Below, one piece after another: positions 2,434 to 14,367 of a DNA stretch of 64,000 nt; the stretch's first letter is position 1; each line of letters begins with the position of its first letter. The translations under genes and the position numbers were made by a program. The notes beneath the pieces were generated by a model, which had not been told where the DNA came from, did no database searches, and was given only the letters and a program-made list of their open reading frames with translations. Source of the DNA: a virus. The stretch is taken from the IMG/VR virus record IMGVR_UViG_3300025151_000022, positions 24,236-88,235 of that record; one strand, written 5' to 3'.

Positions 2434-4296
2434 TTATACTATTGGAGTAACTTCCATTAAAACCTTTCTAGCGTTGCTGCTCAGCTGATAAGATTTGTAT
2501 ATATTGTTCAAAATCACAATTCCTTTATATGTTCCGTCAACATTTAGATTATCACCTCCAAAAAGTTCTTCTGTTGCATAATTAGAACCAGCACCCCAAC
2601 CATTAGGTTGTGATGCCGAAAAAGGAGCTCCTCCTGCGCCAGCAGCACCTTGTGTTTCAGAATTAGTGCCAATAAAAGTAAAATCATTATTAATCGCGCA
2701 TTTTTGACCAGTAAAACTATTTGTACCATCATAAACTGGTATTTGAACATTATTATGAATCGTGGCACGGTTCGCGGCGATGGCAGCCGAATCTACCCAA
2801 CTGACACCAGTGAGAATGACTGTAAATCTTCGAGGAATTGTTAATATATCGCTATCAGCAGCATTCGAATAGTAATTACTAAACGTAGAAGTGTTTTGAT
2901 ATGTAACACCATTGTATGTAAAGTCGGAATAACTACCCGATATAATACTACGCGATTCCGCGTATCCATAACTACTATGATTATATATTCCCTCTGATTT
3001 ATTATTCCATGCCATCTGAGTACCCAGTCTCACATTATCATAAGATGAATACCACGAAACACCATAATCGTCCGCTATATCACTGCTATAAACCGGACTA
3101 CCATTACTTTCTTCTCTTATCACTGGAGGAAAAGAACCAGTATTTGCATCAATTTTAAAGCGATATATCCTGCCGTCACCAGGGGAAGCATATGGAGATG
3201 CAACAAATAAATTGAAAGATGCATTCGTATCTGTCAGAGCATCATCACCTGCAGATATGCTCATGCCAAAGTGTTCCTGATCGTCTTCATCACTTTCCCT
3301 ATTAGATGATGGAAAGTGGTCATAATGAAATGATACAAACCGATTTTTAAATGTTCCACTTACATCAAATTGATAGACTCTTCCTTGTCTATACCAAGTA
3401 TTATTACCATCATCACGAGCACTCGGAGCACCAGCAAAAATTTGACCACGATGTATGCATACTGAATATCCAAAATGTGCGTTCTGTCTTTTAATATCAT
3501 AAGTGCCACCATCGAACTCTGAAGATGGGATGCTTAATCTATTTTCTCCTGTCCCATCTAAATTAAAAATAAAAACTGCTCCTTCGCGTGATCCAGTAGA
3601 TGCACTTGAATCCGAAGTGCTTTGAAATGCTGGAGCACCTACAACAATTTTACCACTTCCTATACCAACAGAATGACCAAATTGTCCTCCAATTTCATTA
3701 CTTGATGGAGTAATTATAGTTTGATTACTGCCATCTAAATCCCAAACATACACTCTACCTGCAGTGTCAGTTGGCCACGAAGCTGGATCAGTCCCACTTG
3801 AATTTTCAACTCGTTTAGTTCCTCTATCTCCAACAGCGATCTTTCCTTCTCCTACTGCAACAGAAAATCCCCAACTTGTAGATGCTACTCCAACTGGTCT
3901 AGGAATAAAAGTATATCCAGTGGAACCAAAACCAATATTGCCGTGGTCTCCAAAACCACCATGTTCTTGATAGATATCAAGATCTCCATTGTAAACACGA
4001 ACTCCTTCTGGGGAAGTAATTGCAAGTACAGTGCTACTTGGATCTGGATCTGCGACAATTGCTCTACCAAGTCCTTCAGATTCTGATACGCAAAGTGCCT
4101 TCATAACATAATCAAAGTCTTTAGTTTTTGGTAAAGGAGTTGCTGGAGGAGCAGGAGTTACTGTACCATCAGCAAATTTAAATTCAGGTCCACCACCATC
4201 AGGAAAAATCCAAACGTTGTCTGTGGATTCCCATTCAGATTCTTTTTGAAGTGAAAAAACTTCGTTTAAAGATAATACTCCTCTAAGATCTGACAT
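2434..4296 (-). CDS. Adhesin-like virion protein with FG-GAP beta-propeller repeats, 620 aa
   Basis: Residues 20-56 form an N-terminal module (W-E-S-x-D-N-V-W-I-F-P-D-G-G-G, then GTVTPAPPATPL) almost identical to that of the neighbouring 502-aa protein, including at DNA level. From about residue 130 to 400 there are integrin-alpha-like FG-GAP blades: GQFGHSVGIGSGKIVVGAP, HFGYSVCIHRGQIFAGAPSA and HFGMSISAG. Each is followed by a GRVYxxDxDG strand. Propellers of this type usually bind ligands or glycans and often calcium. The C-terminal 200 residues are aromatic and Ser/Asn-rich with no recognised fold. A tail-fibre or decoration adhesin is inferred from the array context. Confidence 0.75.
   Translation of the reverse strand: MSDLRGVLSLNEVFSLQKESEWESTDNVWIFPDGGGPEFKFADGTVTPAPPATPLPKTKDFDYVMKALCVSESEGLGRAIVADPDPSSTVLAITSPEGVRVYNGDLDIYQEHGGFGDHGNIGFGSTGYTFIPRPVGVASTSWGFSVAVGEGKIAVGDRGTKRVENSSGTDPASWPTDTAGRVYVWDLDGSNQTIITPSSNEIGGQFGHSVGIGSGKIVVGAPAFQSTSDSSASTGSREGAVFIFNLDGTGENRLSIPSSEFDGGTYDIKRQNAHFGYSVCIHRGQIFAGAPSARDDGNNTWYRQGRVYQFDVSGTFKNRFVSFHYDHFPSSNRESDEDDQEHFGMSISAGDDALTDTNASFNLFVASPYASPGDGRIYRFKIDANTGSFPPVIREESNGSPVYSSDIADDYGVSWYSSYDNVRLGTQMAWNNKSEGIYNHSSYGYAESRSIISGSYSDFTYNGVTYQNTSTFSNYYSNAADSDILTIPRRFTVILTGVSWVDSAAIAANRATIHNNVQIPVYDGTNSFTGQKCAINNDFTFIGTNSETQGAAGAGGAPFSASQPNGWGAGSNYATEELFGGDNLNVDGTYKGIVILNNIYKSYQLSSNARKVLMEVTPIV
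4148..4233. repeat. Direct repeat copy 1 (shared adhesin N-terminal module)
   Basis: This 86-base segment matches 5693-5778 in the same orientation with about seven mismatches by eye. The flanking DNA diverges at once. It encodes the common N-terminal module of the 620-aa and 502-aa propeller proteins and could serve as a homologous crossover point for swapping distal domains. Confidence 0.8.
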
Positions 4297-4326: not shown

Positions 4327-5835
4327 TTAGAGAATAGGAGGAAATGGCATCATTTGCCAATTATCCTCAACATCATTCACTAACCTTTCTGCATATAATG
4401 CTCCATTTAGGTTTCCAGATGCGTGATTATTACCCACTAAAATATGCCTTTCTATACCATCGAATGGTGGTTGCTCATGAGCAGGATCATATTCACTCAG
4501 AGACACAGTAACAGAACTCCAATAACCGGTGCCAACAAAACTAGTTGTCTTATAGTAAATTCTATTTGTTCCCGGAGCCATAACCATGTTTAGTGAGCTG
4601 ATACTGGATCCACCATTCGATAGTCGGGCTCGGTATGTTCCAATATTGCTGCGATGACCAAACATATCACCTCTTTGGAAAAGATCATTATATGCCCAAT
4701 CCTTATAAGTTCCAGCCATTATGTATTCTCCTGCTGAAGTAGAACCCGGAATACTTGAATGATAAATTACTCCACTTTTATCTTTAGATCCAGTACCAAA
4801 AGAACTAGTTTGTTCATCACACTCACTAGATCCGCAAACAAATTTTCCATTTTTTGCAGCAACATGATAACCCATACGATCATAAGAAGTGACTCCATCA
4901 CCATAATTGTCAGATGCATCATCAGGATCTTCAGCAAAATGCCAAGTTTCGCCAGTACCATCGAGTTTATATGTAAATACTTCTCCATGATAATATCGTA
5001 TAAAATCTTGTGAACCTCCTGGAGCTCCGACTACAATACGACCATTACTTATAGCTACACTATATCCAAAGAGTATATCATATGCATTGTAATTTTCAGT
5101 ACCAGCTCTAGTGAGAGCATTTGCAGAAGGTTGTATTTTAAATTCACCAGTGCCATCTAAATTATAAACATACACTGCTCCAGCATTGGTGTCATTTCTA
5201 GAACCATATACTTTAGTTTCATTTGGGTTGCCAATTGCAACCTTACCATCTCCACAGGCACATATTTTTCCGAAATCATCGGCAATTCCTCCAGTTCCTG
5301 TACCTGCTTTGTCTATGTTTACATACCCAGTTCCATCATAATTCCATAAATGAGCTCCAGTAGTACTACTAACGCAAATCTTTTCATTGGTGGTGTCAAC
5401 TGTTAAATAATCGCCCCAGGCATCATCAGTTTCTGCATTAGCATAACTTATTTTTCTTAAAGCACCTGGGGGATAATCATCAGGATTTGTTGAAATAGTA
5501 ACTTCTTCATTAGAAGAATCCCAAACAAATATACTTTGTTTTCTATATATTAAAATACTATTAGTATTACTCTTAGCAGCTAAAAAAACAAGATCATCAG
5601 TCGCATATATTCCTCTCACTCTAGGGAAGGAAGCGACAATATCAAAATTTATACCTATTTTTGCGAGAGTCATACCTAAGGGAGTGGCAGGTGGCGCAGG
5701 AGTTACTGTACCATCAATAAATTTAAATTCGGGTCCACCGCCATCAGGAAAAATCCAAACGTTGTCTGCAGATTCCCAGGTATTTTCGACAGCTTTTTCA
5801 TTTGCTTCAGTTAAAGTAAATACTCCTGCTGACAT
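4327..5835 (-). CDS. Adhesin-like virion protein with FG-GAP beta-propeller repeats, 502 aa
   Basis: Paralogue of the adjacent 620-aa protein. The first residues (MSAGVFTLTEANEKA) resemble the start of the 884-aa Kelch-like protein. Residues 18-53 carry the shared WESADNVWIFPDGGG...TVTPAPPATPL module. FG-GAP-like blades follow: GKVAIGNPNE, FGYSVAISNGRIVVGAPGG and MGYHVAAKNGKFVCGSS. A late-promoter-like GATAAATA lies 17 bases upstream of the ATG. The fold is known for carbohydrate or protein recognition; host-receptor binding is an inference. Confidence 0.75.
   Translation of the reverse strand: MSAGVFTLTEANEKAVENTWESADNVWIFPDGGGPEFKFIDGTVTPAPPATPLGMTLAKIGINFDIVASFPRVRGIYATDDLVFLAAKSNTNSILIYRKQSIFVWDSSNEEVTISTNPDDYPPGALRKISYANAETDDAWGDYLTVDTTNEKICVSSTTGAHLWNYDGTGYVNIDKAGTGTGGIADDFGKICACGDGKVAIGNPNETKVYGSRNDTNAGAVYVYNLDGTGEFKIQPSANALTRAGTENYNAYDILFGYSVAISNGRIVVGAPGGSQDFIRYYHGEVFTYKLDGTGETWHFAEDPDDASDNYGDGVTSYDRMGYHVAAKNGKFVCGSSECDEQTSSFGTGSKDKSGVIYHSSIPGSTSAGEYIMAGTYKDWAYNDLFQRGDMFGHRSNIGTYRARLSNGGSSISSLNMVMAPGTNRIYYKTTSFVGTGYWSSVTVSLSEYDPAHEQPPFDGIERHILVGNNHASGNLNGALYAERLVNDVEDNWQMMPFPPIL
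5693..5778. repeat. Direct repeat copy 2 (shared adhesin N-terminal module)
   Basis: Second copy of the 86-base repeat at 4148-4233, about 92 percent identical by eye. It lies at the 5' end of the 502-aa propeller gene. Confidence 0.8.
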
Positions 5836-5860: not shown

Positions 5861-6535
5861 TTAGTTTTCAACCTTGATATTATATTTTTTTGAAAGTTTT
5901 TCATTTTGTTTTTCTAAAGAAGCAAAACCTTGAACTGTCAACCATGTTACGATAGAATATCTAGTTCCTTTGGTCACTGGTTCAACTCCATGCAAAAAAT
6001 AATGGTTAGAGGGGAAACAAACCAACATACCTTTCTCTGGTCTAATTCTAATTCCACACTCAGGAAAAATTAAATCACCACCTTCAAAATCTTTTCCACC
6101 ATCATTTAAAAAAAATATCATAGATAAATCTCTATCGACACTTTTTTTGAAAATTGGACCATCAGGAGAATTCCATAAAGCTTCTCCATCAACGTGAGGT
6201 CGGTAGTGTCCACCAGGTTTATATATTAATAATTGGGGTAATTCTCCATCAAGTACATTTATACCATAAAATTGATTAACAATATTTTTTACACTATGAA
6301 AAAGTAATTCTTTTAAACCCGAATAAATGGGTTCTATAGGAACAGTTTGTGTATTTCTGATATTTTTATCCGTTCTCCATTTTGGTTCTTTACTAGATTT
6401 ATTAGTTTTTTCGGGGTCAAAGATAGATAAATCTGAAATTTCTGAAGAATTTTCAATATGAGAAACTATTTCTTTTATTCCTCGTTCAGAAATAACATTT
6501 CTTTCTATTAAAATATTTGAAAGTAGTTTGTTCAT
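5861..6535 (-). CDS. 2OG-Fe(II) oxygenase, prolyl-4-hydroxylase type, 224 aa
   Basis: Residues 100-205 form a double-stranded beta-helix oxygenase domain. The iron facial triad is visible as HVD (His114, Asp116) and a distal His182 in FLHGVEP, with Arg192 in GTRYSIV placed to bind 2-oxoglutarate. The strands LSMIFFLND, GGDLIFPE and KGMLVCFPSNHYF are typical of the P4Hc family. Such enzymes hydroxylate prolines or other residues in proteins. The gene overlaps the upstream 150-aa gene by four bases and lies between fibre genes and glycosyltransferases. Hydroxylation of a fibre protein is possible, but the substrate is unknown. Confidence 0.85.
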   Translation of the reverse strand: MNKLLSNILIERNVISERGIKEIVSHIENSSEISDLSIFDPEKTNKSSKEPKWRTDKNIRNTQTVPIEPIYSGLKELLFHSVKNIVNQFYGINVLDGELPQLLIYKPGGHYRPHVDGEALWNSPDGPIFKKSVDRDLSMIFFLNDGGKDFEGGDLIFPECGIRIRPEKGMLVCFPSNHYFLHGVEPVTKGTRYSIVTWLTVQGFASLEKQNEKLSKKYNIKVEN

Positions 6536-6984
6536 TGCATACGAAATATGGTAAATGTTACAGACAAATCATTACCAAAAGAATGCCAAAGATTTGAACG
6601 AAATAAGACTAATTTATTATACTTTGATTGTATATTTGCATATTGATTCCATAAATTAATTTCATTTGATACATTATATTGCTCATGTATGGATTCATTT
6701 GGACAATATTCAAGTCCAGTTTCTTTATGCGAAAAAAACTTTAATACTAGTTTCTTTGCATTAAGTGATAGTGGATCATCTAAGAAGTGAACTCCAGTCC
6801 ATCTACTATTATTGTCTGATATAACTCCTCTAGAAACTTCTTTGTCAGTCGAAAAAGATTTAATTTCTACTTTTTCATTTAAAATCTGAGAAATTCTTTT
6901 TGGAACTTCATCAAATACTTGTTTGAATGAAATTTTTTCAACACCATCAATAAAATTGTCTACTATAATAATATTCCGATCCAT
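6532..6984 (-). CDS. Degenerate DUF6445-like 2OG oxygenase paralogue, 150 aa
   Basis: Both ends match the 207-aa oxygenase at 9487-10110: IIIVDNFxD at the start and NKLVLFRSNLWHSFGND near the end. The middle is shortened and the HxD iron motif is absent; ISDNNSRWTG stands where the longer protein has IHVDPIWQFG. The arginine expected to hold 2-oxoglutarate is also missing. His134 of NLWHS remains. This looks like a non-catalytic or decaying copy, although the frame is intact and the gene overlaps its downstream neighbour by four bases. A binding or regulatory role is possible. Confidence 0.65.
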   Translation of the reverse strand: MDRNIIIVDNFIDGVEKISFKQVFDEVPKRISQILNEKVEIKSFSTDKEVSRGVISDNNSRWTGVHFLDDPLSLNAKKLVLKFFSHKETGLEYCPNESIHEQYNVSNEINLWNQYANIQSKYNKLVLFRSNLWHSFGNDLSVTFTIFRMQ

Positions 6985-6989
6985 TAAAT

Positions 6990-8834
6990 TTAATCTTCAT
7001 AATATCTTTGGGAAGTATTTGTTCTACTATTAAAATATCCTCCAACCTCATTATCATCACCTTTTAATTTAAGTTGATTTTTTTCTTCAAATGCTTTGAG
7101 AGCACCTGTTCCAAGATCAACACCTGTAAGTTTTTCGTATCCGCGCATCACTTTAGTTTCTAAATCTTTAATGAATTCATCTCTTCCTTCTTGAGAAAGA
7201 AGTTTATCAATAGACAAGTAACCTTCTTTCAGATTATTTCTTTCGTCAATAAGTGATGGTGCAGAAGCACGTCTCATTGCCTGTAAATTTCCACCAGAAA
7301 TACCAGTTCTACTGGACATTAAATCATCAAGTGCTTGTTCTGCAAGACGAGTATCCCAATATTCCTCATTTTCTTCTAAGAATTGTTCTCTTGTTGGAGG
7401 AGTGCCTCCATTTCTTTCTACCAGTTTGTCGAGAATTTTATCAAATAATTCTAATTGATGTAAACGATCTCTAATCTCATTCTCTGAAGTTTTTAAATAA
7501 TGCATTAGTTGAAGTTCTTCCAAATCATACCAATGGGGAACTTTATACTTATCAGAAGATTTTTGATCACCTTCATCTCCATCTGCAGAATAGAGAAGAG
7601 GTTTAGATTTATCATGATGATCTTTCCACTTAAATTCAAAATTACGAACTGTTCTTTTCATATCAATTAATTTATGCATATATCCTTCCGCCATAATTCG
7701 ACGTTCTTTCAAGATATGCTCAAAAGTAACTGAAATATTGTGAGTATTTAAAGTAATAAATTTTTCAATCTGGAAGTTAGTTCTCCCCTGCGCCATTTCT
7801 TTATCACTTTCTTCCCACTTTAATACATTTGCAGATGCTTGACGAAGATAATCATCATTTTCAACAGCTTCTCTTGCACTAAGAGGTCTGTAACTTAAAG
7901 AACTTTCTTCATTCATCATGGTATTTTCGGTAAATTTTGAAATTAATAAATTCCACTGATTAGCAATGGTTTTCCAATCATATTTTTCAGAAACATAATC
8001 AGAAATAGTTTTTGAGACTTTTTGATAAAACGATTTATCTCTATCAAAATAATCTAATAAGGAACAACAAGTCTCGGTGAATTTATTTATAAAGTTTTCT
8101 GAAACCTTGTAACCCGTATTGGTAGATTCTCCATCAATTGGAACAACAACTGAATTTTGTTTTCCAGCAACTTCATTTAGTGCTCCGATATCAGTGATGA
8201 TTGGAAATGCTCCACATTTCATTGCTTCTATCATAGAAACGCAAAAAGTTTCTTCCCATATACAAGGATGTACAAAAAAAGCAGATTCTTGATAGTGTTC
8301 GATAAGTTTTTCCCTATCAACTGCAGAAGAATACTCTACATTTGGTAATCTTTTTAGATAATTATATACTTCTTGATATGTATCTTCCATATCATCTCCA
8401 TACAATGACATAGAAGAAAATATTTTAAATTTTACATCGGGATGTTTTTCCAATACTCGTGGAATAATTTTAGACAAAACTTCTAGTCCTTTATATGGAA
8501 TAGAAGTGAAAATCATAGTCTTACTTTTTCTTTGAGAATACTTAAACATATCCGCAACTCCATTTGGAATTACAGTAATTTTTTCTTCAGGAACATTGTG
8601 ATATTTAATAAACATATCTTTATTCCATTGAGATGGGGATACGATATGATTTACAATATTATGATCAAAATTTAAAAATATTCTCTGATCATATGCATGG
8701 TGTGCCCATAAAATCTTAATAGGATGATTTGACTCTAAAATGTACGAAGGTAAATGTGATACAAACACATTTTTGGGAAATTTATAATGTTCTTGAAGAT
8801 AATAGTAAGAAGTTTCAGTTGCTCCAGATTTCAT
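6990..8834 (-). CDS. GT-B glycosyltransferase (GT4-like) fused to a helical C-terminal domain, 614 aa
   Basis: Residues 1-320 are a group 1 glycosyltransferase. Visible signatures are the linker HIVSPSQWNKDMFIK, VIPNGVADMF, the phosphate-binding segment FTSIPYKGLEVL and the donor-site EX7E motif in EETFCVSMIEAMKCG with FPIITDIGALNE. Such enzymes transfer sugar from a nucleotide-sugar with retention of configuration. Residues 330-614 are charged and largely helical, unlike known GT4 tails, and could be a targeting or structural domain. The gene overlaps the GT-A gene by four bases. The N-terminus is somewhat short for a full first Rossmann domain, so substrate specificity cannot be called. Confidence 0.8.
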   Translation of the reverse strand: MKSGATETSYYYLQEHYKFPKNVFVSHLPSYILESNHPIKILWAHHAYDQRIFLNFDHNIVNHIVSPSQWNKDMFIKYHNVPEEKITVIPNGVADMFKYSQRKSKTMIFTSIPYKGLEVLSKIIPRVLEKHPDVKFKIFSSMSLYGDDMEDTYQEVYNYLKRLPNVEYSSAVDREKLIEHYQESAFFVHPCIWEETFCVSMIEAMKCGAFPIITDIGALNEVAGKQNSVVVPIDGESTNTGYKVSENFINKFTETCCSLLDYFDRDKSFYQKVSKTISDYVSEKYDWKTIANQWNLLISKFTENTMMNEESSLSYRPLSAREAVENDDYLRQASANVLKWEESDKEMAQGRTNFQIEKFITLNTHNISVTFEHILKERRIMAEGYMHKLIDMKRTVRNFEFKWKDHHDKSKPLLYSADGDEGDQKSSDKYKVPHWYDLEELQLMHYLKTSENEIRDRLHQLELFDKILDKLVERNGGTPPTREQFLEENEEYWDTRLAEQALDDLMSSRTGISGGNLQAMRRASAPSLIDERNNLKEGYLSIDKLLSQEGRDEFIKDLETKVMRGYEKLTGVDLGTGALKAFEEKNQLKLKGDDNEVGGYFNSRTNTSQRYYED

Positions 8835-9490
8835 TGTTCTTCTCCATAAATGTGATATCCAGTATGATTTAATTTTATTGAGACATCAAGCCATATATCA
8901 TAACCAACTTGATTTGCTCTATGAAAAAATGATTTATCTTCCGATAAAAATGTATTACCTCTCTTATATTCCGAAAAATAGTGATATGAGTTTTTTATTT
9001 CATTTGGACTATGTGGGTATTCAGTATGATAATCTGTTGGAATATATTTTAAACCTGGATATTTCATTGCAATATCGACAAAAACTTTACGATGAATTAA
9101 TGCAAACCCCAAACCATTTCCATAAATCTTAACTAAATCACCTCTTCTTTCTTCTGGTTCATATGGATTAAAGCAATATTTTGTTGGCAAAGTTTTCATT
9201 GGATATGCCCCAGTAACAATTGGAAGTTTATATGAAATTAATTTCATAACATCTTCTTTTTGAAACCCAATATCACTATCTAAGAAAAACAAATACTCAT
9301 GATCAGTATTATTCAAGAAAAAATTAACTATTCTTGATCTTCCCTGAGAAATTAAAGAAGAATTTGATAGACTCAAAATTGAATGAGGAATATCATTTCT
9401 TACAAATTCTTTACCAAGATTGAACAATCCAATAGTAGTTTGTTCAGATACATTTCCGCCCCCGCATGGGAGTCCTATCATTATACTCAT
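8831..9490 (-). CDS. GT-A fold glycosyltransferase, 219 aa
   Basis: A short family-2-like glycosyltransferase. The N-terminus IMIGLPCGGG leads into RSRIVNFFLN and the metal- and nucleotide-binding DSD motif (Asp71, Asp73) in YLFFLDSDIGFQKED. A later VTGAYPMK and GNGLGFALIHRKVF are typical of the acceptor side. It overlaps the 614-aa glycosyltransferase downstream and the 207-aa oxygenase upstream by four bases each, forming a translationally coupled cassette. The acceptor (fibre protein, DNA or host glycan) is not shown by the sequence. Confidence 0.8.
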   Translation of the reverse strand: MSIMIGLPCGGGNVSEQTTIGLFNLGKEFVRNDIPHSILSLSNSSLISQGRSRIVNFFLNNTDHEYLFFLDSDIGFQKEDVMKLISYKLPIVTGAYPMKTLPTKYCFNPYEPEERRGDLVKIYGNGLGFALIHRKVFVDIAMKYPGLKYIPTDYHTEYPHSPNEIKNSYHYFSEYKRGNTFLSEDKSFFHRANQVGYDIWLDVSIKLNHTGYHIYGEEQ

Positions 9491-10110
9491 TTATCAAAGA
9501 AATTAATTGGATTAAAAAAGAATAGCTGAACTAAACGACCATCAGAAATATCTTTACCAAAATTATAGTTGTGAGAATGCCAGAGATTTGAACGAAATAT
9601 AACCATTCTATTATACTTCATTGGACATAAAAAGTATCTACTCCATAACTTTCTATCAAGACCATCACCATAGACAACTTTTTCCCAATGAGAATTCTTA
9701 GAAGTATATCCATACATTCTAGCTTTTTCATCACTATCAAGTAACTGATCTTGACCAGAAGAATTATGAATCCAAAAAGATGTTCCTCCTTCATCAATGC
9801 ATTGTTCTGGAGTATTTAAATAACAAACTGCCCCAAATTGCCATATAGGATCTACATGAATATCTTGTTTAAACTTATCTTTCTCTAAAGATAAACGAAA
9901 ATAACCATTCTGATCCGCTGGAATAAGTTTTCTACCAAGAATTTCTTCAAATTTATTGTGTATTTCTTTTGTATAGAAATTTGTCTTTGAATTTTTTCCT
10001 GGATATGTATGATTACCTGTAGGGGTTGGATATTGAGAATTTATAGCAGCATCTCGTACTTTTTTTGGATCATCGTAAAAATTATCAATGACTATTATAC
10101 TTCTCTTCAT
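9487..10110 (-). CDS. 2OG-Fe(II) oxygenase-like protein, DUF6445 type, 207 aa
   Basis: A candidate facial triad is intact: His85 and Asp87 in DIHVDP, His178 in RSNLWHSH, and Arg192 in DGRLVQL for 2-oxoglutarate. The first residues IIVIDNFYDDPKKVRD are characteristic of this oxygenase-like family in marine phages. It lies directly downstream of the 884-aa Kelch-like fibre and overlaps the GT-A gene by four bases. Hydroxylation ahead of glycosylation is an attractive but unproven link. It is the likely functional relative of the degenerate 150-aa copy. Confidence 0.75.
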   Translation of the reverse strand: MKRSIIVIDNFYDDPKKVRDAAINSQYPTPTGNHTYPGKNSKTNFYTKEIHNKFEEILGRKLIPADQNGYFRLSLEKDKFKQDIHVDPIWQFGAVCYLNTPEQCIDEGGTSFWIHNSSGQDQLLDSDEKARMYGYTSKNSHWEKVVYGDGLDRKLWSRYFLCPMKYNRMVIFRSNLWHSHNYNFGKDISDGRLVQLFFFNPINFFDK

Positions 10111-10134: not shown

Positions 10135-12789
10135 TTAGACTATAGATCTGCTGTGATACTTAGCGGTCCTTTGTTCTGGTCCTCCCATTCCATTATTTTC
10201 ATTACAAGCTCCATAAACTGCACCACCATAAGTTTGACCCGGACCTCTATCATCTGGTGATGATGAGATATGGTAGATAGTTCCAGTTGTAGTGCCTTGT
10301 TGATACATGTTGCCGTCGTCTTTAAGAATATGGAAAGTATATCCAGTATACCAACTATACGTCCTGTATCCATCATTGTAAAGTCCACTAGAGTTAGTAA
10401 GATTAGCGTAAGCACTGTCCAATGTATCAGTTGAGAACTGTATTCTTCCAATATTACTAACACCATCATGAGCATAAAGCATACCATAAACACCATCAGA
10501 AGTTCTAGTATAACCACCAGAAAAAGAAGCACCTACATTAGGTAAGGCAGAAAAACTTTCTGTTGAGAATGTAAATTTTTGGAAACCACTTGCACCTCTA
10601 ATAAAATAAAGATAATCCATAGTTCCAATAGTATGTCCTGCAAAACTCGAATATCCACTTCCTAGTGTAGTATATGCATGAGTTGGAGTATTGGTTGGAA
10701 TAGTAGAATATGTCTCTGTTGAATATGTAATTTTTTCACAGTCTGTATTGTTTGGATAGTCTCCTTGAATATAAAAGTTTGCATTTGGTGCATTTTCTGT
10801 TCCATTAACGAATCCCCCTAAGACATATCCAGTACTTGTATCTCCACCGTATTGTGATAGACCTTTTTCCCTCGGAAGACTTGAAGATGGAAGGTATGTA
10901 ATTGTGTCTTGAATATAACTTATCTTATGTGTATCGCTTCTCAGTATTCTTCCACTTCTCGCACCAGGATAATCACCAGTATTAACTGGATAGATGTTAT
11001 CGTTCTGTCCACCAACATATTCATCTCCGCCCGATACATATCCCGCTGATCTATTAGATAAAGCTGCTGATGCATAAACTGGCAAAGTTACTGCTGCCTT
11101 TCCTTCTGGGGGATCCGACTTCCATCTATACCATCCATTAGTGCCTGCAGTTCCCGAAGTTAAATTGCCAGTTTTCATCCAACTAGCACCTAACGAAACT
11201 GAAACATTACTGTATCGTGGATTTAATAGCGAAGTGTCAAAATTATTATATGGAGCTGGATTTGTTGCGTTATTAATAAATGTACTTATTTTATAAAGGG
11301 TCATTCCACTTCCTAAAATGTATCCATATGTTGGCCCTCCACTATACAGAAAATCTGGGTCTTCTTCGAGTGTTTCTGTTGGAGGTGTTCCTGGTTGCCC
11401 ATAATAATTTGTCGCAGGACCACGATCAAAAGGTATTTGATAACCACCTTGATATGGTTTTCCTTGTCCAGTTGCCGAAGCAAACGTATTTGTACGTAAA
11501 CCAGTACTAGTTAAAGTACTTACAGTTCCAGTGGAAATATTAAATTTATCTGCAAATCTATCGGATGTACCTGGAGTAGCACTCATTGCATACACAGATG
11601 TCCCAGAACTTGCTGATCTTACATCAAAACCACTTTTATCATCAGCAAAAGTACTACGATTTGCACCAGAAACTACATTCATAGTTTCTGTAGAAAATGA
11701 TATTTTATCAATTTCACTTGAAGCGTTTCTAGTAGAAGAATATTTAAAATCACTACTATCTCTTCCCATAGTGTATGCTTCTGTACTGTTTCCATCCGCA
11801 CCATTAGAAAATGAGGCACTTCTAAATGGACTATTATTTGCTGCATGGGAGACTAGATTTATACTTGGAACTCTAGAACTAGTTTCAGTACTATACGTTA
11901 GTCTGAACATAGCAGAACTGTAATGGTAATGCCATGGACCATGACCAGAATAACTCCGCCATTGACCATAAGTTGGTAAATTTGATTCATCAACATTCTT
12001 ACCAGCAGCTTCTCCACCACCAACATATCCTCTATCTAGGTTTCCAAAACTTAAAAAATACGCTCCCTTATAAGATTCTCCTGTGCTATATCCAGGCAAC
12101 ACTGATTTTGCATCATTAGTATAGTTGATTTTATAATATTGAGAACTTGCATAACCACGTTGATTGGGATATGTGTAGTAATAATTTCTGAACCAAGACT
12201 CCGTTATATAATCATATTTCTTGCCACCTATTATATAACCAGCCTCATTATTACCAATTGTTGATGCTGCATATCTACCTGTACCAAGAGTATTTTCTAG
12301 ACCTTTAGATTTATCAACAAACCCAGCACCAGGGGAAGGATCATAATCTACATAATCTAATGTTACTGATGGAAGAGATGATTGACTATCATTAGAAAAA
12401 GATATTTTCCTTACTACCGCACCATTACCACCTGGCCAATTATCAGCACCGACAGACGTAGGCATAAAATATTCTGTACCACCACAATGATATGCATCTC
12501 TACTGTTTGCTAAAATCCACCTATTTTCGGCATCACTGTCTAATGAAGGCAAAGGTGAAGCAGTTTCAGTGTCAAAGGAAAGTTTGTCAAGATGTGTTTG
12601 TGCTGAAAAAATTCTATCTGAACTTGGAATTGCATAAGAACTACTTGCATCGACAGTAGCACTACGAAATCCATATGCACTTCTGTTTACAGGATTGCCT
12701 TGGTAGTGCCAAACATCAGAATAATCGACCCATTCATCCTTTATCTTTTTTGTTCTTACTCTGGATAATGTGAATATACCCCTTGCCAT
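10135..12789 (-). CDS. Kelch-like beta-propeller adhesin, 884 aa
   Basis: After an N-terminus like those of the propeller proteins (GIFTL...DEWVDYSDVWHY), the protein repeats a unit of about 50-60 residues. One strand is GYxxGG (GYIIGGKKYD, GYVGGGEAAG, GYVSGGDEY, GYVLGGFVNG). The partner strand is K-I/F-x-F/Y-S-T-E-T-x-S-x-L-P. This resembles Kelch or galactose-oxidase-type blades. At least eight such units are visible, enough for one propeller and possibly a second. There is no signal peptide or catalytic motif. It is probably a receptor-binding fibre or decoration protein, and it sits immediately before the oxygenase/glycosyltransferase cassette. Confidence 0.75.
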   Translation of the reverse strand: MARGIFTLSRVRTKKIKDEWVDYSDVWHYQGNPVNRSAYGFRSATVDASSSYAIPSSDRIFSAQTHLDKLSFDTETASPLPSLDSDAENRWILANSRDAYHCGGTEYFMPTSVGADNWPGGNGAVVRKISFSNDSQSSLPSVTLDYVDYDPSPGAGFVDKSKGLENTLGTGRYAASTIGNNEAGYIIGGKKYDYITESWFRNYYYTYPNQRGYASSQYYKINYTNDAKSVLPGYSTGESYKGAYFLSFGNLDRGYVGGGEAAGKNVDESNLPTYGQWRSYSGHGPWHYHYSSAMFRLTYSTETSSRVPSINLVSHAANNSPFRSASFSNGADGNSTEAYTMGRDSSDFKYSSTRNASSEIDKISFSTETMNVVSGANRSTFADDKSGFDVRSASSGTSVYAMSATPGTSDRFADKFNISTGTVSTLTSTGLRTNTFASATGQGKPYQGGYQIPFDRGPATNYYGQPGTPPTETLEEDPDFLYSGGPTYGYILGSGMTLYKISTFINNATNPAPYNNFDTSLLNPRYSNVSVSLGASWMKTGNLTSGTAGTNGWYRWKSDPPEGKAAVTLPVYASAALSNRSAGYVSGGDEYVGGQNDNIYPVNTGDYPGARSGRILRSDTHKISYIQDTITYLPSSSLPREKGLSQYGGDTSTGYVLGGFVNGTENAPNANFYIQGDYPNNTDCEKITYSTETYSTIPTNTPTHAYTTLGSGYSSFAGHTIGTMDYLYFIRGASGFQKFTFSTESFSALPNVGASFSGGYTRTSDGVYGMLYAHDGVSNIGRIQFSTDTLDSAYANLTNSSGLYNDGYRTYSWYTGYTFHILKDDGNMYQQGTTTGTIYHISSSPDDRGPGQTYGGAVYGACNENNGMGGPEQRTAKYHSRSIV

Positions 12790-12792
12790 GTT

Positions 12793-14367
12793 TTACTCCG
12801 ATGCTAGGATGCCAGAAACTTGAAGATGTATTGATTGTCCTGTAGAGTTTCCTATACCCAATCTCATATTTTCTTCTAATCTCTTTGGTTGTTCAAGAAG
12901 TTCTACTACAGCATATTTTGGAATAATTAAATTTTTAACAATATATATTGGTTTTTCATCTTCTGCTTGGGCAGCAACATAAATGAATCCACGCATATCA
13001 GCTGGGTGATTTGTACACTCATATCTGTATGTTCCTGGAGTTATACTAGTTGTATCCCAAGTTACTGTCGTTGTTCCTGCTCCAGTAACTCCTGTCGTAA
13101 ATCCTGCACCACCGAATGCATCAACAATCGTAAATGGATGACTAGAATGAGTTTCATCCATGTTGAATTTAAGAATATCACCTTGATTTACATTAAAAGA
13201 AGTGTCAGTATTATCAGTTAGTGTGCCATTTCGATCACTTCCTGTAAAATAGTAATCTAAACTTGTAGTAGAAGCTGCAATACTTACTATATTGAACGTT
13301 TGCTGAGGTGACTGTGTATATACCGAGATCAAATGTGGTCCAGTATTAGTTTTATTACATGCACGAATCGACTGTAATACAGTTGGGTTACTTTCTGAGG
13401 TATAAACAGTTTTTGTTTGATTTGAAGTTGCTAAAACACCATCTCCAAGTCCAAATCCAAAATAATTAGTATCATTTTTTTCTTCAATCGTCATATGAAC
13501 GTCAACGGACGTACTGACACCAGACCTATTATAGTCGGTTGATCTCATCACAAGTCTATCTGATGGACCTAGTACAATTGGTTGGGGTAAAACTTCTATA
13601 GCACCACCCGATGAAATTGGTACGTTATATGCAAAATAACTTCTTTCTACACTTGTAGGGTATGATGTATAATCAGCACCATTACTGAGAGTATTACTAC
13701 GGTCGTAATCTATTGCACCAATAATATTTACTTCTGTAGTTCCAGCAGCAACATTACTTGCCATTAGGGAACGTATGATATATCTACTCCCAGTTGGAGC
13801 AGCAGGAGCTACGAAAAGAGTAGCACCAATTCCAGTAAGTACTTCTCTAACACTACTAGAAATACCAGAATTAAAATCTCCTCCTCCAGCACCAGCACCA
13901 CCGACAGTTACTTCTACTGTATCATTTACGATTGCAAAAGTATTACCAGCTCCAAGAAAATTAAATTGAGTGACACCAGTACCAATTAATACTCCACCAG
14001 ATTGAATACCAACGCCAGTTCCTCTAATGCCAATATTTACAGTGCTTCCATCAACTGAAAATGTATTTCCTGCCCCAACAAAGTTTAATTGAGTTATACC
14101 AGCACCAATAGTTGTTCCTTCTGACTGAACACCAACTGCTGTTATGAAGGTAGTTGTCAATCCAGTGAGAGAAGAACCGTCACCAATAAATGATTGAGCA
14201 GTTACAACACCCGATACACTTGCATTACCACTGAAATTTGCATCGGCACCAGAGACTTCTCCACTGCCGCCATCTATTCCTCCCGTTGCAGTTACAATAC
14301 CAGCAAATTGGGCACCGCTTAAAATGTTTGTACTAATTAATTGGGCCTTTGTTTGTTGCTCCGACAT
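12793..14367 (-). CDS. Fibre-like protein with inserted cupredoxin domain, 524 aa
   Basis: Residues 60-150 carry two copies of a beta-repeat (TQxNFxGAGNTFxx). Residues 165-300 form a jelly-roll-like module. A second copy of that module starts at about 320 (SNPTVLQSIRACNKT) and is interrupted at about 360-465 by a cupredoxin domain, resuming at IYIVKNLIIPKYAVVELL. The cupredoxin shows a complete type-1 copper ligand pattern: His410 in HPF, Cys451 and His454 in YECTNHP, and Met458 in ADM. A late-promoter TATAAATA lies 25 bases upstream of the start. Copper binding is predicted from the ligands only; electron transfer or structural metal binding in a virion protein would be unusual. Confidence 0.75.
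   Translation of the reverse strand: MSEQQTKAQLISTNILSGAQFAGIVTATGGIDGGSGEVSGADANFSGNASVSGVVTAQSFIGDGSSLTGLTTTFITAVGVQSEGTTIGAGITQLNFVGAGNTFSVDGSTVNIGIRGTGVGIQSGGVLIGTGVTQFNFLGAGNTFAIVNDTVEVTVGGAGAGGGDFNSGISSSVREVLTGIGATLFVAPAAPTGSRYIIRSLMASNVAAGTTEVNIIGAIDYDRSNTLSNGADYTSYPTSVERSYFAYNVPISSGGAIEVLPQPIVLGPSDRLVMRSTDYNRSGVSTSVDVHMTIEEKNDTNYFGFGLGDGVLATSNQTKTVYTSESNPTVLQSIRACNKTNTGPHLISVYTQSPQQTFNIVSIAASTTSLDYYFTGSDRNGTLTDNTDTSFNVNQGDILKFNMDETHSSHPFTIVDAFGGAGFTTGVTGAGTTTVTWDTTSITPGTYRYECTNHPADMRGFIYVAAQAEDEKPIYIVKNLIIPKYAVVELLEQPKRLEENMRLGIGNSTGQSIHLQVSGILASE

What the first reader, a model, noticed from the sequence alone, without database searches (positions are those of the whole stretch)
5861..10110. 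Oxygenase/glycosyltransferase cassette inside the adhesin array
Five coupled genes (P4H-type oxygenase, degenerate oxygenase, GT-B fusion, GT-A, DUF6445-type oxygenase) overlap by about four bases or nearly so and lie between propeller adhesins. Hydroxylation followed by glycosylation is the logic of hydroxyproline or hydroxylysine O-glycans. A phage that post-translationally decorates its own fibres this way would be a new kind of virion modification system.
Basis: inference. Interest (0 to 1): 0.68.

Follow-up and report, generated by a model that had tools for sequence, protein, structure and literature searches.

The report
Phage enzymes interleaved with propeller adhesins
A marine cyanobacterial virus carries a row of hydroxylating and sugar-adding enzymes wedged between genes for its propeller-shaped attachment proteins, and dozens of related viruses show the same alternation, so the virus probably chemically decorates its own attachment proteins, although nobody has yet looked for the decorations.

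Summary
In detail: five overlapping genes (DUF6445-type oxygenase, GT-A, GT-B plus helical domain, an oxygenase-like protein without its metal site, P4H-type oxygenase) lie between propeller-like genes, downstream of the long tail fibre of a T4-like cyanophage. Homologues in over 100 viral contigs show this is a mosaic of enzyme and adhesin genes rather than a fixed operon. In loci picked by the propeller alone, all 41 non-redundant ones carry a cassette enzyme; enzymes neighbour a propeller in 124/150 cases (other genes 8/120), and two propellers almost never touch (1 case; about 19 expected). Relatives also interleave sulfotransferases whose nearest solved structures are human protein-tyrosine sulfotransferases. 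Catalytic residues are invariant in the P4H, DUF6445 and GT-A families. The 'degenerate' oxygenase lacks its metal site in 25/25 sequences yet is under purifying selection: a conserved pseudo-oxygenase. Best reading: cytosolic phage enzymes modify the adjacent adhesins during late infection (about 0.6). The hydroxyproline/hydroxylysine O-glycan chemistry is unproven: adhesin necks are proline-enriched, but not in step with the hydroxylase gene. Virion glycosylation (mycobacteriophages) and hydroxylation-plus-glucosylation (mimivirus) are known, so this is a new variant. No modification has been measured.

The parts
9487..10110 (-). DUF6445-type 2OG-Fe(II) oxygenase (207 aa), catalytic HxD...H...R intact
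   Evidence: Pfam PF20043 1.3e-17; H85, D87, H178, R192 invariant in 22/22 non-redundant relatives
8831..9490 (-). GT-A glycosyltransferase (219 aa), DxD motif LDSD
   Evidence: phrog_1574 4.2e-29; nearest solved structure STIV A197, 2c0n, E 1.8e-6; D71, D73, H209 in 40/40
6990..8834 (-). GT-B (GT4-like) glycosyltransferase, about residues 1-300, fused to a helical accessory domain, about residues 311-614
   Evidence: Pfam PF13692 1.2e-14; EX7E (E195/E203) invariant; the two halves are separate genes in L008-L010 and L046
6993..7904 (-). Helical accessory domain (CTD) of the GT-B fusion, found alone in S-SKS1 and other phages
   Evidence: AlphaFold pLDDT 67, almost all helical; only significant structural match is the S-SKS1 homologue
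6532..6984 (-). Pseudo-oxygenase (150 aa), DUF6445-like, metal-binding HxD lost, distal His kept
   Evidence: no HxD in 25/25 relatives, distal His in 25/25, median dN/dS 0.14
5861..6535 (-). P4H-type 2OG-Fe(II) oxygenase (224 aa)
   Evidence: PF13640 2.5e-18; nearest solved structures prolyl 3-hydroxylase 1 (8e-12) and bacterial P4H (3e-9); H114, D116, H182, R192 in 36/36
10135..12789 (-). Propeller-like adhesin with kelch-like repeats and shared N-terminal motif (884 aa)
   Evidence: homology to kelch-like relatives; N-terminal motif; fold model failed
4327..5835 (-). FG-GAP propeller adhesin with shared N-terminal motif and a Pro/Ala/Thr neck (TVTPAPPATPL)
   Evidence: PF14312 3.7e-6
2434..4296 (-). 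FG-GAP propeller adhesin with the same N-terminal motif and neck
   Evidence: PF14312 2.9e-7
12793..14367 (-). Fibre-associated protein upstream of the adhesin array, partly conserved in related arrays
   Evidence: phrog_677 4.3e-10; related ORFs in L002, L003, L005, L010
24918..30803 (-). Long tail fibre protein heading the array
   Evidence: phrog_529 tail fiber protein, E 0

Best explanation
An adhesin-modification module of a T4-like cyanophage. Soluble phage enzymes made from the same array as the propeller adhesins act on those adhesins in the host cytoplasm before or during fibre assembly. The P4H-type and DUF6445-type oxygenases hydroxylate side chains; the GT-A and GT-B enzymes add sugars to hydroxyl groups on the adhesins; in relatives a TPST-like sulfotransferase adds sulfate. 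The helical domain fused to GT-B and the pseudo-oxygenase would be substrate-recognition or scaffold subunits. The result would be chemically varied receptor-binding tips. Shown: gene identity, catalytic residues, array position, recurrent enzyme-adhesin alternation, selection on the pseudo-oxygenase. Inferred: substrate, order of reactions, linkage, sugar, role of the two non-catalytic parts, benefit to the phage.
For: Loci picked by propeller alone: 41/41 non-redundant carry a cassette enzyme; enzymes adjacent to a propeller 124/150 vs 8/120 for other ORFs, Fisher 1e-39; propeller-propeller neighbours 1 vs 19 expected, minimum 9 in 2000 shuffles. Order is shuffled between relatives while the association stays. 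Similar associations in more distant settings: S-SRM01 RCC1 propellers with 2OG oxygenase, sulfotransferase, GT and epimerase; pelagiphage HTVC023P tail protein, 2OG oxygenase, GT-B, GT-A; ACG-2014f GT-A among tail collar genes with GT and epimerase; S-WAM2 DUF6445 protein beside tail fibre genes. P4H nearest to prolyl hydroxylases, GT-A to a viral GT, ST to protein-tyrosine sulfotransferases. No membrane segment. Heptose-activation genes next to the array in some relatives. Adhesin necks proline-enriched, 8.0% vs 4.4%, 0/2000 resamplings.
Against: No modification has been measured. Neck proline content does not depend on P4H presence or adjacency. The window record shows no sulfotransferase and has two propellers side by side. 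Co-location could reflect a recombination hotspot. GT-B starts inside its N-terminal domain in nearly all relatives seen, so the acceptor side is atypical. The propeller fold of the upstream gene was not confirmed. A related cyanophage gene cluster has been read as capsule decoration or secondary metabolism (PMC7824862).
Confidence: 0.6

Rival explanations
1. The enzymes remodel host surface glycans or make a carbohydrate or small molecule (capsule decoration, superinfection exclusion, secondary metabolite); they sit in the adhesin array because that is a hotspot for exchange of host-interaction genes.
For: Nearby sugar-activation, carbamoyltransferase and epimerase genes in relatives; this reading was published for a related cyanophage cluster (PMC7824862); Fe(II) oxygenases are listed among genes of hypervariable phage islands (PMC3909814).
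Against: Alternation with single propellers (1 vs 19 expected adjacencies) is tighter than a general hotspot predicts; enzymes have no membrane segments; P4H and ST families match protein-modifying enzymes best; a hotspot does not explain a similar pairing in an unrelated pelagiphage.
Confidence: 0.2
2. The non-catalytic parts, and perhaps all the enzymes, are folding or assembly factors for the repeat-rich adhesins, as gp38 or gp57A are for T4 fibres, with the catalytic activity secondary.
For: One protein per adhesin is the pattern of phage fibre chaperones (general knowledge); the pseudo-oxygenase is conserved without a metal site; the helical domain resembles prefoldin, but only at noise level (E 0.3).
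Against: Complete catalytic sites invariant in P4H 36/36, DUF6445 22/22 and GT-A 40/40 indicate that catalysis is selected; prefoldin match not significant.
Confidence: 0.1
3. Hydroxylation plus glycosylation of phage DNA bases (T-even or TET/JBP-like logic).
For: 2OG oxygenase plus GT is a known DNA hypermodification combination (general knowledge); weak sub-threshold Tet_JBP similarity of the P4H (E 0.0073).
Against: No PF00303 thymidylate synthase/dCMP hydroxymethylase in the record, with positive controls; no Tet_JBP match (no positive control, fragment only); the GTs match general GT4 and phage families in Pfam, not the T4 glucosyltransferases; the genes sit with adhesins, not replication genes; published view that cyanomyoviruses show no evidence of modified or glycosylated DNA (PMC2984593).
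Confidence: 0.04
4. 2OG oxygenases consume 2-oxoglutarate to tune host nitrogen metabolism, or repair DNA, unrelated to neighbouring genes.
For: Proposed for cyanophage 2OG oxygenases in general (PMC3037559; PMC9602691).
Against: Does not explain pairing with adhesins, GTs and sulfotransferases.
Confidence: 0.06

Closest known systems
Mimivirus L230 collagen lysyl hydroxylase/glucosyltransferase
   Same: Virus-encoded 2OG hydroxylase and GT acting on a viral structural protein; hydroxylysine found in virions (PMC9614988)
   Different: One bifunctional protein acting on collagen repeats in a giant virus of amoebae; here separate enzymes of other families interleaved with propeller adhesins in a bacteriophage, with a pseudo-oxygenase and, in relatives, a sulfotransferase
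Mycobacteriophage virion glycosylation (Freeman et al. 2023, cited in PMC12619734)
   Same: Phage virion proteins carrying glycans, attributed to phage GTs
   Different: Capsid and tail tube C-termini there; no hydroxylase coupling known to me; here the predicted targets are receptor-binding adhesins
STIV A197 (2c0n) viral GT-A
   Same: Nearest solved relative of the GT-A by profile (E 1.8e-6)
   Different: Archaeal icosahedral virus; similarity is partial (query positions 27-141)
Cyanophage 2OG-Fe(II) oxygenases (phrog_61, phrog_1644) listed as auxiliary metabolic genes
   Same: Same superfamily and, for DUF6445, the same PHROG family
   Different: Annotated as DNA repair, metabolism or 'minor coat protein'; not linked to adhesin modification in the papers read
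Eukaryotic secretory-pathway modification set (prolyl hydroxylases, GTs, TPST)
   Same: Similar three chemistries predicted across relatives; P4H and ST match those enzymes best in the PDB
   Different: Phage enzymes of the bacterial cytoplasm; substrates unknown

Membership tests
2OG-Fe(II) oxygenase superfamily (P4H-type protein) | HxD...H metal triad and 2OG-binding Arg | tested here: met
   H114, D116, H182, R192 in 36/36
2OG-Fe(II) oxygenase superfamily (DUF6445-type protein) | HxD...H metal triad and 2OG-binding Arg | tested here: met
   H85, D87, H178, R192 in 22/22
2OG-Fe(II) oxygenase superfamily (6532-6984) | HxD...H metal triad | tested here: not met
   HxD absent in 25/25, distal His kept; conserved pseudo-oxygenase
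Prolyl hydroxylase (P4H/P3H) | Hydroxylates peptidyl proline | not testable with these tools
   Only sequence proximity: P3H1 8e-12, P4H 3e-9
GT-A glycosyltransferase | DxD metal motif and late His | tested here: met
   D71, D73, H209 in 40/40
GT4/GT-B glycosyltransferase | C-terminal GT1 domain with EX7E | tested here: met
   PF13692/PF00534; E195/E203 invariant in four relatives
GT4/GT-B glycosyltransferase | Complete N-terminal Rossmann domain | tested here: inconclusive
   PF13439 matched only over residues 37-93; nearly all relatives start at the same place
Beta-propeller adhesin (flanking genes) | FG-GAP or kelch repeats | tested here: met
   FG-GAP_2 for 4327-5835 and 2434-4296; kelch in relatives of 10135-12789; that gene itself only by homology
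Protein-tyrosine sulfotransferase (relatives only) | PAPS-binding P-loop and 3'-phosphate Arg/Ser, TPST similarity | tested here: met
   GLPRSGSTLL, R118/S126 invariant; TPST1 1.4e-9; tyrosine as acceptor not tested; none found in the window record
Virion-glycosylating phage system | Glycan on purified virion protein | not testable with these tools
   needs mass spectrometry
T-even DNA glucosylation | Pyrimidine hydroxymethylase gene | tested here: not met
   PF00303 absent from the 88-kb record, controls positive; the record may be a fragment
Mimivirus L230 | GT and lysyl hydroxylase in one protein acting on collagen repeats | tested here: not met
   separate genes; the record's collagen-like protein has very few prolines and lysines in its triplets

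The most novel reading that the evidence does not exclude
Marine cyanophages run a modular post-translational modification system for their receptor-binding propellers: each adhesin gene travels with its own modifying enzyme (prolyl-type hydroxylase, DUF6445 oxygenase, glycosyltransferases with a dedicated recognition domain and a pseudo-oxygenase partner, tyrosine-type sulfotransferase), so tip chemistry as well as sequence is swapped between phages to change host recognition.
Probability: 0.35. Interest if true: 0.86.

Novelty: new variant of a known kind. Interest (0 to 1): 0.66.

Why it matters
2OG-Fe(II) oxygenases are among the most numerous unexplained accessory genes of marine cyanophages (24 in one genome, PMC9602691), and the function of phage sulfotransferases has been called unclear (PMC10580990). 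The alternation with adhesins gives both a concrete, testable substrate. If true, phage receptor binding depends on chemically decorated proteins, which would bear on host-range prediction, on the interpretation of recombinant adhesins made without their enzymes, and on the origin of complex protein modification in viruses.

Tried and rejected
Recent transfer as the cause of the low GC: not supported, since third-position GC equals that of the tail genes. Pseudogene reading of 6532-6984: rejected, median dN/dS 0.14, like its intact relatives. Neck proline motif as the P4H target: enriched but no dependence on P4H presence (p 0.99) or adjacency (p 0.77); PPxATPT linkers limited to one lineage. 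Collagen-like protein of the same record as substrate: very few prolines or lysines in its 200 triplets. AlphaFold of the propeller: failed, pLDDT 25. Helical domain: no significant PDB sequence match; fold search found only its S-SKS1 homologue, prefoldin at noise level. Bacterial relatives of the P4H: three loci, none seen in an adhesin array. Sulfotransferase in the window's record: none found. Literature: no paper in the held library was found proposing adhesin modification by these genes; most subscription papers and preprints are not covered.

Full report
Where it lies. The window is positions 24236-88235 of an 88,235-base virus record. Gene content is that of a T4-like cyanophage: long tail fibre, baseplate hub and lysozyme, single-strand binding protein, helicase loader, PhoH. 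The nearest relative in the annotated phage collection is a Kyanoviridae single-cell record, MH319754.

Observation. The five genes are real, on the minus strand, with three 4-nt overlaps and one 5-nt gap, 24-25 nt from adhesin genes on each side. Family assignments hold: DUF6445 oxygenase, GT-A, GT-B, a DUF6445-like relic, and a P4H-type oxygenase. By profile the P4H-type protein is closest among solved structures to prolyl 3- and 4-hydroxylases and the GT-A to A197 of the archaeal virus STIV. The GT-B protein is a fusion: in L008-L010 and L046 the GT and the helical domain are separate genes.

Catalysis. In non-redundant sets from viral contigs the metal and 2-oxoglutarate residues are invariant in the P4H (36/36) and DUF6445 (22/22) families, and the DxD and late His of the GT-A in 40/40. 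The relic lacks HxD in 25/25, keeps the distal His in 25/25, and has a median dN/dS of 0.14, like its intact neighbours. It is therefore a maintained pseudo-oxygenase rather than a decaying gene. In the first set it directly followed the helical domain in 8/8 cases.

Four scans of viral contigs were anchored on the P4H, on a propeller alone, on the sulfotransferase, and on the GT-A. With the propeller as anchor, all 41 non-redundant loci carry at least one cassette enzyme; enzymes sit next to a propeller in 124 of 150 cases against 8 of 120 for other ORFs. Two propellers are neighbours once, where shuffling gene order gives 19 on average and never fewer than 9 in 2000 trials. Gene order varies between relatives, so what is conserved is enzyme-adhesin pairing, not a fixed operon. 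Caveats: ORFs were called mechanically, propellers by an N-terminal profile and repeat signatures, some contigs recur between scans, and fusion of adjacent propellers into one ORF would also lower the count. The sulfotransferase anchor reaches further: 22 of 45 are next to a recognised propeller, the rest in other contexts.

Adhesins. Propellers of different repeat types (FG-GAP in the window, kelch-like elsewhere) share an N-terminal motif of about 25 residues (RGxFxL...Q...W...VW), perhaps for docking on the fibre. The neck between this motif and the first blade is richer in proline than the segments before later blades: 8.0% against 4.4%, with three or more prolines in 25% against 4.6%. This is suggestive for a prolyl hydroxylase, but neck proline is independent of P4H presence or adjacency, so the target remains open.

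Recurrence in more distant settings. S-SRM01 interleaves RCC1 propellers with a 2OG oxygenase, a sulfotransferase, a GT and an epimerase. Pelagiphage HTVC023P has a tail protein, a 2OG oxygenase, GT-B and GT-A in one stretch. ACG-2014f places the GT-A relative among tail collar genes, with a GT and an epimerase. S-WAM2 has a DUF6445 protein beside tail fibre genes. The sulfotransferase profile is closest to human TPST1/2. Next to some arrays lie heptose-activation genes, a kinase and an adenylyltransferase like the two halves of HldE, pointing to a possible donor sugar in those phages; such genes were not seen in the window's record.

Mechanism and rivals. The enzymes have no membrane segment; adhesins are made and assembled in the cytoplasm, so cytosolic modification is feasible (general knowledge of T4-like assembly). 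I favour modification of the neighbouring adhesins (0.6). Host-glycan or small-molecule chemistry (0.2) is the main rival and has been proposed for a related cluster (PMC7824862). DNA modification is unlikely: no PF00303 enzyme in the record and a published statement that cyanomyoviruses show no evidence of modified or glycosylated DNA (PMC2984593). General 2-oxoglutarate or DNA-repair roles (PMC3037559) do not explain the pairing.

Novelty. Phage virion glycosylation and viral hydroxylation-glycosylation are each known (PMC12619734; PMC9614988). One study listed Fe(II) oxygenases among host-recognition genes of hypervariable marine phage islands (PMC3909814). Pairing of several modification chemistries with individual adhesins was not found in the held literature; hence a new variant of a known kind.

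Noticed in passing
L065:9057-11009 (-) and 10999-12003 (-), same virus record outside the window: A second DUF6445 domain, at the C-terminus of a 650-aa protein whose N-terminal part looks like TPR repeats, overlaps a GH130-like gene; a similar pair occurs in L040, and S-SCSM2R has a comparable TPR-type/DUF6445 gene.
   Followed up: partly
L066:3027-7439 (-), same virus record outside the window: A 1470-aa collagen-like protein with 200 Gly-X-Y triplets, Gln in 108 of 200 Y positions and very few prolines, interspersed with other segments.
   Followed up: partly
L065:8176-9036 (-), same virus record outside the window: Radical SAM protein with a SPASM domain near the DUF6445 fusion; possibly another protein-modifying enzyme.
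   Followed up: no
window 12793-14367: Fibre-associated protein with a weak plastocyanin-like C-terminal stretch (PF00127, E 0.03, below cut-off).
   Followed up: no
L003:19759-21219, L013:6037-7497: Two adjacent ORFs resembling the separate kinase and adenylyltransferase halves of HldE, plus a HAD phosphatase-like ORF, directly downstream of the P4H gene.
   Followed up: partly
L002:18414-22288: Downstream of the P4H: a second sulfotransferase, a weak GT9 (heptosyltransferase-like) hit and a carbamoyltransferase.
   Followed up: no
L011:6226-6887 (S-SKS1): The P4H homologue of cultured phage S-SKS1 reads as two overlapping ORFs, either a frameshift or a sequencing error.
   Followed up: no
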